From the IMG/VR virus record IMGVR_UViG_3300037805_000380, positions 1 to 21,873 of that record: 21,873 bases of DNA. One strand, given 5' to 3'. Position numbers and translations under genes: made by a program. This stretch comes from a virus. Below are positions 735 to 10,914 of this stretch, piece after piece. The number at the start of each line of letters is the position of its first letter. Within the stretch, counting starts at the first letter, position 1. The notes below the pieces were generated by a model. That model saw nothing but the letters and a program-made list of their open reading frames with translations, was not told the DNA's origin and ran no database searches.

Positions 735-759
735 TCTTCCACCTCCACTTCGATTTCAG
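724..759. repeat. 36-bp direct repeat, copy B (translation-start cassette)
   Basis: This segment is identical to 1059-1094 except for one base. On the minus strand it spans the last codons of one gene (ending EIEVEVEE), the ribosome binding site GGAGGTGG, the ATGA overlap and the first codons (MNKR) of the next gene. Confidence 0.85.
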
Positions 760-1069
760 TCCAGTCAGCTTTAAATACAACACCACATCCAGTAACCCTT
801 TCCGCCGCCTCAGCGTCACGATAAAATAATTCTGTCATGGCGACGTCTTTGCCATCAACAACCACAAACTGCCACATTTTCACCTTCTGCTTGGGTTCTT
901 TGTAGATTTCCCATTTACCATCTTTCCCTAGCGTTAAATTCGATTGACTGCCATCTTGGTATTTAAAATAACCATCGACAGTGCAATAATATATAAATTC
1001 ACCCGACATTTTTTCTAATTTAACCTTATCACCACTAATCATTGCCTGTATTGCTTCACGTTTATTCAT
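731..1069 (-). CDS. Hypothetical phage protein (112 aa)
   Basis: The product begins MNKREAIQAMISGDKV, followed by a probable small beta-rich domain containing GKWEIYKE and MWQFVVVDGKD. It ends in the acidic tail EIEVEVEE. The N-terminal pattern (MNKxxAIxAMxxGxKV) is seen in uncharacterised phage proteins, from memory; I assign no function. ATG at 1069 overlaps the stop of the upstream 30-codon gene by 4 bases and is preceded by GGAGGTGGA, so the start is well supported. The acidic tail is shared with that 30-residue product through the duplicated cassette. Confidence 0.75.
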   Translation of the reverse strand: MNKREAIQAMISGDKVKLEKMSGEFIYYCTVDGYFKYQDGSQSNLTLGKDGKWEIYKEPKQKVKMWQFVVVDGKDVAMTELFYRDAEAAERVTGCGVVFKADWTEIEVEVEE

Positions 1070-1094
1070 TCATCCACCTCCACTTCGATTTCAG
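1059..1094. repeat. 36-bp direct repeat, copy A (translation-start cassette)
   Basis: Partner of 724-759 with 35 of 36 bases identical. It covers the end of a 30-codon ORF (EIEVEVDE), the ribosome binding site and the start codon of the 112-residue gene. It is an apparent tandem-type duplication of a gene junction. Confidence 0.85.
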
Positions 1095-1158
1095 AGCCTT
1101 CGACTTTTCGCCATTTAGTCACATTTACCGCCATAATGTAATTCATTGAATAGCTCAT
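1066..1158 (-). CDS. Tiny ORF (30 aa), possibly a remnant of a duplicated gene end
   Basis: A 30-codon ORF (MSYSMNYIMAVNVTKWRKVE, then an acidic tail EIEVEVDE) starts by an ATGA overlap with the MazG-like gene stop (1155-1158) and ends by an ATGA overlap with the next gene. The perfect tiling favours translation. Its last residues duplicate the C-terminus of the neighbouring 112-residue protein, so it may be the shortened leftover of a tandem duplication, kept because it carries the next gene's ribosome binding site. An internal ATG (residue 10) could also be used. Function is unknown. Confidence 0.5.
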   Translation of the reverse strand: MSYSMNYIMAVNVTKWRKVEGSEIEVEVDE

Positions 1159-1461
1159 AACCGCCACACCTTCTCAACGTTAGCAGGATTATAATTCTCG
1201 CCCTTGGTAACTTTCCCATCAGCCCGCTTTTTAGCGCCTATTTTAGAATTGTTTGAGACCATCACCTCATTGAAAGTGGCACCCAAATCAAAGCCGTAGG
1301 CGTTTGCTGTGCCGTAAGCAAGGACTAGAATATCCGCCAGCTCTTTAGCGACATTTGGCAGGTCACTTTTAAGCTCGCCTTGTAAATATTCAGCAAACTC
1401 TTCCCTTAATAAGCTGACTCTTAACTCTAGCTTCAGTAAAATCATGCCATTCTTGGTTCAT
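1155..1461 (-). CDS. MazG-like nucleotide pyrophosphohydrolase, split by an apparent +1 frameshift
   Basis: MazG-type enzymes hydrolyse nucleoside triphosphates to monophosphates and pyrophosphate; phage copies are thought to adjust nucleotide or alarmone pools. The body carries the metal-site pattern LREEFAEYLQ...VAKELADILVL (ExxE, then ExxD) and the family-like tail DGKVTKGENYNPANV. The best start is ATG 1461, 3 bases after the upstream stop and preceded by GAAGGG. It encodes MNQEWHDFTEARVKSQLI, a typical MazG first helix, but that frame stops at 1390-1392. The rest lies one base forward, entered near 1404-1416. An ATG at 1445 opens the second frame but gives an unnatural N-terminus and lacks a good ribosome site. 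The cause may be programmed +1 shifting, an inactivating indel or a sequence error. Confidence 0.75.
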
Positions 1462-1464
1462 AAT

Positions 1465-1665
1465 TTAATACCCTTCATCTAATATTCGTTTTAGTTCTAA
1501 CTCTTCCAGTTTATCTTCAATGGCTGTTCTACGTTCCGCTGCTTCAGTATCAACAGGCGCACGTCTTTTAACACCACGGCATCTGGCATCTAAATCATTC
1601 TCAACATACGCATTACCAAAGTGGCCGTTCTTCCAAGCTATTGAATTGTCTTTCTCATCACTCAT
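1465..1665 (-). CDS. Hypothetical charged protein (66 aa)
   Basis: The product starts MSDEKDNSIAWKNGHFGNAY and ends with a highly charged helix (about residues 40-66, rich in Glu, Arg and Lys) that could form a short coiled coil. ATG at 1665 has an AGAAGG ribosome site, and the perfect 10-bp palindrome GGGTATACCC (1666-1675) sits between that site and the start. The stop at 1465-1467 lies 3 bases before the MazG-like start, so the two are probably coupled. I do not recognise a family. Confidence 0.65.
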   Translation of the reverse strand: MSDEKDNSIAWKNGHFGNAYVENDLDARCRGVKRRAPVDTEAAERRTAIEDKLEELELKRILDEGY

Positions 1666-1693: not shown

Positions 1694-2449
1694 TTAAAGT
1701 CTGCATCCAAAAGGCGAACCACAACCTTCATCAGCTAGTAAATCAGGATATTCAGAATTTACACGTTTGTTCTTATGTCCATACTTAGCCCAGGCCATAA
1801 CACCGTATATACCCATTGCGCCAAATCTTTTAGGGCGATACATGGTTTTACCAATCTCGACTTCCAAGCTGTTTACCCGCTCAATCTGTTCTTTTGTTAA
1901 TAAGTTGAAGTCAGCACGATTGGCATTTACGCAAGGGCTACACTCTTGTGACCTATGAGCTAATAGCTCAAGCCCTGAACGCTTACATAAAACGTCTCTG
2001 GCTTCGTTAGTATGTTTGTAAAGTGGGTGCCATATAGTTCTGCCACCGTGATAGTCAGAGTTTTCAATAAACTCAGGTGTCTCAGCTCTAGCTCTTGATT
2101 CTGCTCGACGCTTACCAATTAACACAACTGCGCGACATTCTGTGTCGTAGTCATCAAGCCAGGTTAAAAATGGGATTCCTTTTAAATGCGCTGTGCAGAA
2201 CTGCTGGGCGTTTCCTGGGAACCCCATTTTCATTCTACACAATTCCTCCATGCCCATTGACTGAATGCGTACAACAGTGAAGCCATACTTTCTTGCCAGT
2301 GCTTCCCCTTTTTCCACACGTTCATGCCAGTTAGGTGCAGACCAACCAGTATCGCAGTATGCAACTACAACGTTTTTCATTCCGCATTCATATGCGTATT
2401 GAATTAATGCAATTGAATCGTTTCCGTAGCTTGAGCTGATTACGTTCAT
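1694..2449 (-). CDS. PAPS-reductase-family (adenine nucleotide alpha hydrolase) protein
   Basis: The 251-residue product starts MNVISSSYGNDSIALIQYAY. The SxGxDS loop at residues 5-11 is the ATP-pyrophosphatase signature of the PAPS reductase/DndC/ThiI-like superfamily, with Tyr-Gly-Asn in place of the usual Gly-Gly-Lys. Further marks are AYCDTGW (about 29-35), QFCTAHLKGIP (about 82-92) and a cysteine motif ECSPC near 169, with a final CGSPFGC. Such enzymes activate a substrate with ATP or reduce PAPS; phage members are uncharacterised to my knowledge. I choose ATG 2449 because GGAG lies 6 bases upstream; an in-frame TTG at 2461 is less likely. The substrate cannot be inferred. Confidence 0.8.
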   Translation of the reverse strand: MNVISSSYGNDSIALIQYAYECGMKNVVVAYCDTGWSAPNWHERVEKGEALARKYGFTVVRIQSMGMEELCRMKMGFPGNAQQFCTAHLKGIPFLTWLDDYDTECRAVVLIGKRRAESRARAETPEFIENSDYHGGRTIWHPLYKHTNEARDVLCKRSGLELLAHRSQECSPCVNANRADFNLLTKEQIERVNSLEVEIGKTMYRPKRFGAMGIYGVMAWAKYGHKNKRVNSEYPDLLADEGCGSPFGCRL

Positions 2450-2460
2450 TTGATTCTCCA

Positions 2461-2925: not shown

Positions 2926-3489
2926 TTAATCGCAGTCCGCAAACGCTAAAACAGCGTTCTTATAGTTCCCCCACCATTGCAGTGCGTCGTGGTCCATTTC
3001 GTTAATATCATGGTCAGTGAACGATTGCCATTCGTGCACCCTATGACCTTGGCATCCAATTTGTATAAAATCATCACAGCAAACCACATGGTGTGTTTCA
3101 AATTGAGCCGACCTAATAACCGACCCATCACCAATGGCACCATATAAATAGGCACCACGTAAATCGGCACCACGTAAATCGGCATCAGTTAAATTGGCAC
3201 CACGTAAATTGGCACCATATAAATAGGCACCACGTAAATCGGCACCACGTAAATCGGCATCAGTTAAATTGGCACCACGTAAATTGGCACCATATAAATC
3301 GGCACCACGTAAATAGGCATCAGTTAAATTGGCACCACGTAAATTGGCATCAGTTAAATTGGCACCACGTAAATTGGCACCATATAAATTGGCATCAGTT
3401 AAATTGGCACCACGTAAATCGGCACGAGTCCCACCTTCTTCGTTACTTAACCACTTAAGGTGCAGTTGTAAAATGGATTCAATACCCAT
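2926..3489 (-). CDS. Pentapeptide-repeat protein
   Basis: The 187-residue product begins [20 protein letters not shown], followed by about 20 consecutive pentapeptides of the A(D/N/Y)LXX type, with only three repeat variants (RGA, TDA, YGA). These should fold as a right-handed quadrilateral beta-helix of about five coils. A C-terminal domain of about 70 residues ([12 protein letters not shown]...CQGHRVHEW...WWGNYKNAV) resembles the cap of other phage pentapeptide proteins. The start is ATG 3489, with GGGAGA upstream; an in-frame ATG at 3552 lies inside the primase end and upstream of the promoter and is rejected. Known family members act as DNA mimics of gyrase substrates or as scaffolds; the role here is unknown. 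Confidence 0.85.
3136..3420. repeat. 19 x 15-bp tandem repeats encoding the pentapeptides
   Basis: Nineteen units of exactly 15 bp run without interruption, each of the plus-strand form ggca, five variable bases, taaat and one variable base. The variable centre is one of only three words (ccacg, tcagt, ccata). Units 1-5 (3136-3210) and 6-10 (3211-3285) are identical, a perfect 75-bp tandem duplication. The near absence of synonymous change points to recent expansion or ongoing homogenisation. Confidence 0.95.
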
Positions 3490-3516
3490 GTTTGTCTCCC
3501 GTTGTTGTTGGTTACT

Positions 3517-3552
3517 GTAATAAAGAATAGAACACCTTGACCGTTTCGTCAA
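3517..3552 (-). promoter_or_regulatory. Sigma-70-like promoter for the pentapeptide operon
   Basis: The minus strand reads TTGACG (3552-3547), a 17-base spacer, then TATTCT (3529-3524), giving a likely start near 3517 and a leader of about 28 bases to ATG 3489. The minus-35 box overlaps the primase stop codon TGA (3549-3551). It is part of an inverted repeat TTGAC-GAAACG-GTCAA that could be an operator. Confidence 0.6.
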
Positions 3553-5728: not shown

Positions 5729-6019
5729 TTATACCCAGTATTGTTTAAATGCTTTCTCTTTTAGTTGTGCTGTCGCCGTTAATGCTACTGGATGATTATC
5801 TACTAGACCCTCAGCAATGACTGTTAATATTTCATTTTCAACAGCGTGTTTCATAACCTCAGATTTAAGACCTGTAACAGTACCGAAGTGGTAATTCACA
5901 GCACCGTTGGCTACCTTAGCTAAACTTGCAACTGCATCGCGCGTGATTGCTTTAAAGTTTTGAGAACTTGCGATCTTAATTGCAGCTTTTAGAATTCTCT
6001 GTTTCGTTAAATCTTTCAT
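5729..6019 (-). CDS. TetR-type helix-turn-helix protein, N-terminal domain only
   Basis: The 96-residue product aligns by eye with the TetR/AcrR DNA-binding domain: LTKQRILKAAIKIASSQNF, ITRDAVASLAKVANGAVNYHFG and TGLKSEVMKHAV (about residues 4-57), including the recognition-helix pattern VxNGAVNYHF. A usual TetR protein is about 200 residues with a ligand-binding domain; here only about 35 residues follow, so dimerisation and ligand sensing would have to differ. It probably binds DNA as a regulator of phage or host genes; the nearby promoter at 3517-3552 is a possible target. ATGA overlap with the 62-residue gene supports the start. Confidence 0.75.
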   Translation of the reverse strand: MKDLTKQRILKAAIKIASSQNFKAITRDAVASLAKVANGAVNYHFGTVTGLKSEVMKHAVENEILTVIAEGLVDNHPVALTATAQLKEKAFKQYWV

Positions 6020-8888: not shown

Positions 8889-10024
8889 ACCCACCTCGCC
8901 CATCAGGCGCACACCAGTGGAGTGTGTGCCACGGCTCGCATCGTATGCAAGTCAACGCGCCAGAGCAGGAACCAAGCGAAGCAGCCGAAGAAGGAACGGC
9001 CGCCCACTGGTTAGCTGAACAGGTTCTAGACCACTGGTCAAAGCTAGCACCTATTGCACCTCTTAAGCAGGAATATGTCGGTTCAATGGCTGAAAACGAT
9101 GTGCTGATAACTGATGAAATGTGGGACGGTGTCGATACATACGTTACAGATGTTTTAAAATCTGTAAGAGGAGGTGCCACATTGCCAGCGTTGCAAATTG
9201 AGCAGCGTGTTGACCTTGAGTTGATTTACCCTGGTATGTCAGGCACACCGGATGCTTATATATATGATGCTCAAGCTAATCATTTAACGGTCTGGGATTT
9301 AAAATTCGGTCATGGCTTAGTTGAGGTGATTAAGAATCCTCAGCTTATGATTTACGCTGCAGGGATAGTTTCGGCTTTGGGTCTGAGTGAAGTCAATATT
9401 ACACTGAAAATCGTACAACCACGAGCCAGCCATCCACTTGGCTCAGTGCGAAAATGGCAGATTACCAGCAAACATTTAAACCCGTTGATTGCCGATCTTA
9501 GTGTTGCTGCACACCTTGCCATGGGTGAACAACCTAATTGCGTAAGTGGTACTCACTGTAGATATTGTTCAGCACGTCACCTGTGTCGATCACTATCAAG
9601 CACTGTTTATAACGCCATCGATGTGATAACAGAGTCTGTACCTATGACTCTTGATGAACAAGGTCTTTCTACCGAGCTGAAGTTGCTACGTCGAATGGAG
9701 CAGTTGTTTAAATACAGGCTGACTGCTATTGAATCGGAAATTGAGTCTAAATTACGCGGTGGTAGTGCGATACCAGGGTTCTCAGCAAAACAGAAACATG
9801 GACGTAAACGATGGAAGGCTGGCACAGATTTAAACACCGTTGCTATGGTTGGAGATTTAACGGGTGTTCAGTTACGCAAGGATATGCAACTTCTAACACC
9901 ATCACAAGCGAAGAAATTAGGTATTGACGATGCGGTCATATCTTTGTATAGTGAGACTCCTGTTACAGGTTTTAACGTTGTCGAAGATGACACATTACAA
10001 GCACAAGAGGCATTTAAAAAATGA
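8885..10024 (+). CDS. DUF2800 family RecB/Cas4-like nuclease
   Basis: The 379-residue protein has the DUF2800 layout with a PD-(D/E)XK core: EEGTAAHWLAE (H41), GTPDAYIYD (D123), VWDLKFG (D138 and K140) and PQLMIYAAG (Q153). Cysteines C15, C224, C227 and C233 are placed one near the N-terminus and three in a C-terminal cluster, as in Cas4/AddB nucleases that hold a 4Fe-4S cluster. I infer an iron-sulfur exonuclease acting in recombination or end processing. Start and stop are ATGA overlaps with both neighbours; the next gene encodes the SSB-like protein, a common partnership. Confidence 0.85.
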   Translation: MNPPRPSGAHQWSVCHGSHRMQVNAPEQEPSEAAEEGTAAHWLAEQVLDHWSKLAPIAPLKQEYVGSMAENDVLITDEMWDGVDTYVTDVLKSVRGGATLPALQIEQRVDLELIYPGMSGTPDAYIYDAQANHLTVWDLKFGHGLVEVIKNPQLMIYAAGIVSALGLSEVNITLKIVQPRASHPLGSVRKWQITSKHLNPLIADLSVAAHLAMGEQPNCVSGTHCRYCSARHLCRSLSSTVYNAIDVITESVPMTLDEQGLSTELKLLRRMEQLFKYRLTAIESEIESKLRGGSAIPGFSAKQKHGRKRWKAGTDLNTVAMVGDLTGVQLRKDMQLLTPSQAKKLGIDDAVISLYSETPVTGFNVVEDDTLQAQEAFKK

Positions 10025-10914
10025 CAGATTTAATTACATTTACAACACCCGTTGGTCGTATTGTTTCAGGCGATGTTTACAAAGGTAACGATAAGGACGC
10101 GAGTGGTGCGCCAAGGCTTATTAAGTCAGGCCCCAACGCTGGTCAACCAACAGTGCAGTTTTACATTGGTCTAGCGGTTGCTAAAACACCAAACGTGCCG
10201 TGGGAGCAGGAAGAATGGGGTGCTAAGATCATGCAAGTGGCCAGGGGTGGTTGCCCTGCGTTATTTGATCCGGCCACAGGTCAATTACTTCAAGGTCGAA
10301 ACTTCGCGTTTAAGGTTTCGGATGGCGATAGTCAGATTCCCAACACCGTTGGTAAGAAGCCTTGTGATAACGAGGGCTGGGCTGGTCATTGGGTTCTGCA
10401 CTTCTCGAACGGTTTTGCTCCGTCATGTTTCAATAATGATGGTACAGCACCACTATTAGAACCGATGATTAAACGTGGTTATTTCGTGCAAGTGAATGGT
10501 AGCGTTAATGCCAACACGAACATGCAAAACCCTGGTGTTTTTCTGAACCACAACATGATTGCGTTTAGTGGTTATGGTGATGAAATCAAAGGTGGTGCCG
10601 ATCCTCGTGCCGCAGGCTTTGGGGCAGCACCAGCACCAGCAGGAATGAGCGCAACACCTCCGGCTGGTATGGCACCGCCTGCAGCACCGATGGCACCGAT
10701 GGCACCGATGGCACCGATGGCACCGATGGCACCGCCTGCAGCACCGATGGCACCGATGGCACCGATGGCACCGATGGCACCGCCTGCGACAGACCTGATA
10801 CAACCACCCGCTGAAGATCAATATGAATTGCAAGGTCGGGTGTTCAGTCGTTCTGAACTGTTGAGCATGCCTGGTTGGACTGAAGCGGCATTGGCTGGCT
10901 TGACCAAGGTCTGA
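10021..10914 (+). CDS. Single-stranded-DNA-binding-like protein with Met-Ala-Pro repeat linker
   Basis: Residues 1-190 resemble the phage SSB-like (DUF2815-type) OB-fold family: GRIVSGDVYKGNDKD, IKSGPNAGQPTVQFYIGLA, FAFKVSDGDSQIPN, GHWVLHFSNGFAP, KRGYFVQVNGSV and PGVFLNHNMIAFSGYG. It would coat single strands during replication by the polymerase encoded 3 bases downstream. After the core comes a low-complexity linker built of MAP/APP units (about residues 215-255), then a conserved-looking tail, FSRSELLSMPGWTEAALAGL. The usual acidic DDDIPF-type SSB tip is absent. The start overlaps the nuclease stop by ATGA. Confidence 0.8.
   Translation: MTDLITFTTPVGRIVSGDVYKGNDKDASGAPRLIKSGPNAGQPTVQFYIGLAVAKTPNVPWEQEEWGAKIMQVARGGCPALFDPATGQLLQGRNFAFKVSDGDSQIPNTVGKKPCDNEGWAGHWVLHFSNGFAPSCFNNDGTAPLLEPMIKRGYFVQVNGSVNANTNMQNPGVFLNHNMIAFSGYGDEIKGGADPRAAGFGAAPAPAGMSATPPAGMAPPAAPMAPMAPMAPMAPMAPPAAPMAPMAPMAPMAPPATDLIQPPAEDQYELQGRVFSRSELLSMPGWTEAALAGLTKV
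10672..10785. repeat. 9-bp tandem repeats (Ala-Pro-Met) in the SSB-like gene
   Basis: The unit gcaccgatg occurs five times (10684-10728) and then four times (10741-10776). Both runs are preceded by gcaccgcctgca, giving a nested higher-order duplication, and a third gcaccgcct closes the array at 10777-10785. The DNA is almost perfectly identical between units, as expected of a slippage-prone minisatellite. Confidence 0.95.

What the first reader, a model, noticed from the sequence alone, without database searches (positions are those of the whole stretch)
1389..1461. MazG-like gene requires a +1 frameshift
Seen: ATG 1461, coupled to the upstream gene and preceded by GAAGGG, encodes MNQEWHDFTEARVKSQLI and stops at 1390-1392. 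The remaining MazG body (LREEFAEYLQ...) lies one base forward, joined near 1404-1416 at the codons CTT ATT AAG GGA. Known: MazG proteins have a helix of this kind directly before the EExxE motif. Inference: programmed +1 frameshift, an indel inactivating the enzyme, or an assembly error. A programmed shift in a MazG-like gene would be unusual.
Basis: partly seen in the sequence, partly recalled or inferred. Interest (0 to 1): 0.6.

Follow-up and report, generated by a model that had tools for sequence, protein, structure and literature searches.

The report
Phage MazG gene broken at start
A small phage gene for a nucleotide-cleaning enzyme (MazG-like) has lost about 59 bases near its start, so its start codon and the enzyme body lie in different reading frames; this looks like an ordinary deletion or an assembly fault, not a programmed frameshift.

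Summary
The two-frame arrangement is real as sequence. On the minus strand, ATG 1461 opens a 23-codon frame ending at TGA 1392-1390, and the MazG body lies in the +1 frame. The programmed-frameshift reading is not supported. The only close relative found (L002, a viral contig whose nearby genes are mostly 91-99.6% identical) starts its MazG at the same ATG, after an identical ATGAACCA. It reads a 121-residue protein in one frame, and the window lacks a net 59 bases of it between the start and the EExxE motif. Homologues at 163 loci showed no split gene. The frame-0 peptide does not match the family N-terminus (0.8 bits, against 11.2 for L002's under the same model). What is missing is helix 1 and the loop after it, so a one-base slip or error cannot explain it. 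The neighbourhood differs from L002 by other gene-sized indels and a truncated neighbour. Best reading: an out-of-frame 5' deletion or replacement, leaving a pseudogene or a weakly started 96-aa protein from ATG 1445. An assembly chimera remains possible; reads were unavailable.

The parts
1390..1461 (-). Frame-0 stub: ancestral mazG start ATG 1461 leading into 23 codons and TGA
   Evidence: Sequence; start homologous to L002 ATG 2137; peptide without family homology
1471..1476 (-). GAAGGG, Shine-Dalgarno-like site of ATG 1461
   Evidence: Sequence; anti-SD pairing -4.6 kcal/mol
1155..1445 (-). MazG body ORF, 96 aa from ATG 1445, in the +1 frame relative to ATG 1461
   Evidence: Pfam PRA-PH and PHROG 671; family homology from about 1430 onward
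1431..1457 (-). Zone in which the ancestral N-terminus (helix 1 and loop) is lost; exact breakpoints not resolvable
   Evidence: 58 nt here against 117 nt in L002 between ATG and the EE codons; no alignable DNA or protein in between
1465..1665 (-). Upstream 66-aa ORF, stop 3 nt before ATG 1461
   Evidence: 91% identical to the L002 counterpart
1066..1158 (-). 30-aa remnant of a neighbour ORF (117 aa in L002), sign of further deletion next to mazG

Best explanation
A phage MazG-like (DR2231-type, all-alpha NTP pyrophosphohydrolase) gene has suffered an out-of-frame 5' deletion or replacement, about 59 bases net relative to its closest relative. The ancestral start at 1461 and its ribosome site survive but now lead into a 23-codon stub. 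The enzyme body survives in the +1 frame without helix 1 and the following loop. Shown: the frame split, the shared ancestral start, the missing segment, and the absence of the split in relatives. Inferred: that it happened in the phage and not in the assembly, and that the full enzyme is no longer made. A 96-aa helix 2-4 protein could at most be made from ATG 1445, which has a very weak ribosome site.
For: L002 (nearby genes mostly 91-99.6% aa) starts mazG at the homologous ATG after an identical ATGAACCA and reads 121 aa in one frame. From ATG to the EExxE codons is 117 nt in L002 and 58 nt in the window. Homologues at 163 viral and bacterial/archaeal loci show no split N-terminus; Arg34 and Glu41/44 are invariant and Pro23 is nearly invariant, and in the window Arg is in the +1 frame while Pro is missing. 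Body profile 98.1 bits versus L002 body 96.6 with L002 left out of the model. Frame-0 peptide 0.8 bits, placed at the wrong profile position, versus 11.2 bits for L002's N-terminus; 495 of 1584 scored shuffles do as well or better on an N-terminal profile. The same neighbourhood shows other indels: a 573-nt and a 765-nt segment present only in the window, with 13- and 15-nt overlaps at the L002 junctions, a missing 96-aa ORF and a 117-aa ORF cut to a 30-aa remnant.
Against: Body sequence shows no decay: no in-frame stops, no indels versus L002 after EExxE, dN/dS about 0.23, so the event is recent, the truncated protein is still used, or the break is an assembly artefact. No second contig with the same junction was found, and reads were unavailable.
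Confidence: 0.66

Rival explanations
1. Assembly artefact: two strain variants of this block were joined, so the gene is intact in each real phage.
For: The window is a linear virus record of 21,873 bases, classed as often a fragment; relatives of this block differ sharply right here; no independent contig carries the junction; the body shows no decay.
Against: The rest of the contig compared with L002 shows intact genes; the same region shows other biological indels; no long homopolymer at the site (longest run 4).
Confidence: 0.22
2. Functional truncation: the phage makes a 96-aa MazG of helices 2-4 from ATG 1445, and the overlapping stub is irrelevant or tunes expression.
For: Body under constraint; metal-binding residues kept; predicted to fold well (pLDDT 92) and still matches DR2231; in Sulfolobus MazG the bundle is made of two helices from each monomer, described as appearing to be a minimal functional unit (PMC2954211).
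Against: ATG 1445 has almost no Shine-Dalgarno pairing (-0.7 kcal/mol against -4.6 for ATG 1461) and lies inside a frame translated from 1461; no relative found starts there.
Confidence: 0.1
3. Programmed +1 frameshift joins the 23-codon frame to the body.
For: Correct +1 geometry; CTT A at 1413-1410 resembles the P-site part of the Ty1 site (own knowledge).
Against: Not conserved; none of the listed known motifs; the product would lack the conserved loop and carry an unrelated N-terminus; unclustered frame transitions are mostly sequencing errors or indels (PMC3711429).
Confidence: 0.02

Closest known systems
DR2231-type MazG-like NTP pyrophosphohydrolase (dUTPase; PDB 5hva, 2yeu) within the all-alpha NTP-PPase superfamily
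   Same: Body sequence, EExxE and ExxD residues and fold: L002's full-length model matches 5hva_B with TM 0.90 on the query, and the window's 96-aa model matches DR2231 with TM about 0.76 on the query.
   Different: The window copy lacks helix 1 and the 13-residue loop; activity unknown.
MazG-like gene of viral contig IMGVR_UViG_3300024324_000965 (L002/L006)
   Same: Similar gene order around it, same start codon context, body 76% identical.
   Different: L002 is intact, 121 aa in one frame; the window is net 59 nt shorter at the 5' end and split.
Programmed +1 frameshifting (prfB, antizyme, Ty1)
   Same: Only the geometric +1 relation of two frames.
   Different: No slippery or stop motif of the known types checked, no conservation, and a conserved segment is missing.

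Membership tests
MazG-like / PRA-PH all-alpha NTP pyrophosphohydrolase | Profile match of the catalytic body | tested here: met
   Pfam PRA-PH 31 bits, cut-off 21.3; PHROG 671 E 8.2e-24
MazG-like / PRA-PH all-alpha NTP pyrophosphohydrolase | EExxE and ExxD metal-binding residues | tested here: met
   E16, E19 and D38 of the 96-aa body are invariant columns and E15 nearly invariant; the ExxD glutamate (E35) is present in AKELAD
MazG-like / PRA-PH all-alpha NTP pyrophosphohydrolase | Complete fold, including N-terminal helix 1 and loop as in relatives | tested here: not met
   Helix 3-14 and loop 15-27 of the L002 model have no counterpart in the window's open body frame
MazG-like / PRA-PH all-alpha NTP pyrophosphohydrolase | dNTP or NTP pyrophosphohydrolase activity | not testable with these tools
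   Needs purified protein
Programmed +1 ribosomal frameshifting | Two-frame arrangement conserved in relatives | tested here: not met
   Homologues at 163 loci show no split N-terminus
Programmed +1 ribosomal frameshifting | Known type of shift site (stop or slow codon with slippery P-site codon) | tested here: not met
   None of the listed motifs in 1461-1390; other site types not excluded
Programmed +1 ribosomal frameshifting | Shift product gives the complete family protein | tested here: not met
   Net 59 nt missing; frame-0 peptide unrelated to the family N-terminus
Programmed +1 ribosomal frameshifting | Trans-frame protein detected | not testable with these tools
   Needs a reporter or mass spectrometry

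The most novel reading that the evidence does not exclude
The most novel reading not excluded is that the truncated gene is used on purpose: a minimal MazG of helices 2-4 starts inside a 23-codon leader whose frame overlaps it, giving low or regulated expression.
Probability: 0.06. Interest if true: 0.3.

Novelty: new member of a known kind. Interest (0 to 1): 0.1.

Why it matters
It matters little beyond annotation: it removes a false lead for programmed frameshifting and shows a phage accessory-gene block in which mazG, a PAPS-reductase-like gene and a pentapeptide-repeat gene come and go. If the truncated MazG were active, it would inform the minimal fold of this enzyme family.

Tried and rejected
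Junction at 1404-1416: rejected, because family homology in the +1 frame starts at about 1430. Frame-0 peptide as family helix 1 ('EWHDFTEA' resembles 'DFHxAFG' by eye): no support from profiles. Single-base miscount in the A/G run at 1403-1407: rejected as sufficient, since 59 nt are missing net against L002. Homologues that begin naturally with MILLKLEL: none found. Searches for another contig with the same junction or the same flanking genes gave only L002/L006; no DNA match in the phage collection; plasmid hits only distant. Direct repeats near the site (an 18-nt 78% pair 1430-1447/1541-1558) look like chance and were not used. NCBIfam gave no equivalog. The DR2231 primary paper is not held.

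Full report
What is there. On the minus strand the 66-aa ORF 1665-1465 ends with TAA, and 3 nt later ATG 1461 opens a frame preceded by GAAGGG (1476-1471). That frame reads MNQEWHDFTEARVKSQLIKGRVC and stops at TGA 1392-1390. The next frame (+1) is open from 1457 to the stop at 1157-1155 and encodes a MazG/PRA-PH body; the only ATG before its EExxE motif is at 1445. The body passes Pfam's gathering score for PRA-PH and matches PHROG 671, nucleotide pyrophosphohydrolase.

The closest relative is intact. The viral contig IMGVR_UViG_3300024324_000965 (L002/L006) carries the same neighbourhood: VapE-like protein 99.6% over the 474 residues shared, 78-aa ORF 98.7%, upstream ORF 91%, 125-aa ORF 99%; a 112-aa ORF between them is only 37% identical. 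Its mazG starts at the homologous ATG after the same TTATGAACCA and runs 121 codons in one frame. From ATG to the EE codons is 117 nt in L002 and 58 nt in the window: a net loss of 59 nt, which puts the body in the +1 frame. DNA similarity collapses between the start and EExxE and returns after it at 81%.

The arrangement is not conserved. Scans of viral and genome contigs gave homologues at 163 loci; the distinct sequences carry the N-terminal segment in the same frame as the body. Invariant Arg34 (L002 numbering) corresponds to window codon 1421-1419 in the +1 frame, and near-invariant Pro23 has no counterpart. The family profile aligns to the +1 frame from about 1430. The junction proposed at 1404-1416 therefore lies inside conserved +1 sequence, and the frame-0 residues RVKSQLI are not the helix before EExxE. 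With L002 left out of the profile, L002's N-terminus scores 11.2 bits and the frame-0 peptide 0.8 bits; the full profile places the frame-0 peptide at the wrong position. On an N-terminal profile 495 of 1584 scored shuffles equal or exceed it.

What is missing. L002's predicted structure (pLDDT 96) has helix 3-14, loop 15-27, then helices 28-50, 54-75 and 79-91; it matches DR2231, a Deinococcus MazG-like dUTPase, with TM 0.90 on the query. The window's open frame begins at about the start of helix 2; the 96-aa protein is predicted to keep helices 2-4 (pLDDT 92) and still finds DR2231. In Sulfolobus MazG the bundle is formed by two helices from each monomer, an arrangement described as appearing to be a minimal functional unit (PMC2954211), so residual function is conceivable. 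But ATG 1445 has almost no Shine-Dalgarno pairing (-0.7 kcal/mol against -4.6 for ATG 1461).

Neighbourhood. Compared with L002 the window has two extra segments, about 2929-3501 (pentapeptide-repeat-like ORF) and about 1696-2460 (PAPS-reductase-like ORF), with 13- and 15-nt overlaps at the L002 junctions. It lacks a 96-aa ORF found after mazG in L002 and keeps only about the last 17 residues of a 117-aa ORF. A damaged mazG 5' end fits a block that evolves by deletion and exchange.

Programmed frameshift. There is no conservation, none of the listed shift motifs, and a missing conserved segment that no one-base slip supplies. A survey of prokaryotic frame transitions treats unclustered cases as mostly sequencing errors or indels (PMC3711429). 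I put this reading at about 2%.

Limits. Reads were not available and no second contig with the junction was found, so a mis-assembly cannot be excluded. The body shows purifying selection against L002 (dN 0.15, dS 0.66), but this pools both branches and does not prove the window copy is active. The functional-truncation rival overlaps with the best explanation (both accept the deletion), so the confidences are not strictly exclusive.

Noticed in passing
window 1696-2460: A PAPS-reductase-like gene (ORF 1694-2461, PF01507 5.5e-09) is present in the window and absent from L002 as an almost exact single-gene insertion or deletion, with a 15-nt overlap at the L002 junction.
   Followed up: partly
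window 2929-3501: A pentapeptide-repeat-like protein ([13 protein letters not shown]..., ORF 2926-3552) is absent from L002, with a 13-nt overlap at the junction.
   Followed up: partly
window 1066-1158: A 30-aa ORF overlapping the mazG stop codon is the C-terminal remnant of a 117-aa ORF of L002.
   Followed up: partly
window 738-754 and 1073-1089 (minus strand): The same 17-nt sequence ATCGAAGTGGAGGTGGA ends two adjacent ORFs and provides the Shine-Dalgarno of the next gene in each case, suggesting duplication of gene tails.
   Followed up: no
window 10021-10914: An ORF just upstream of the DNA-polymerase-like gene carries a long APMAPMAP repeat tract near its C-terminus.
   Followed up: no
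window 5729-6019: A 96-aa ORF matches only the N-terminal DNA-binding part of TetR regulators (PF00440, 1.5e-05).
   Followed up: no
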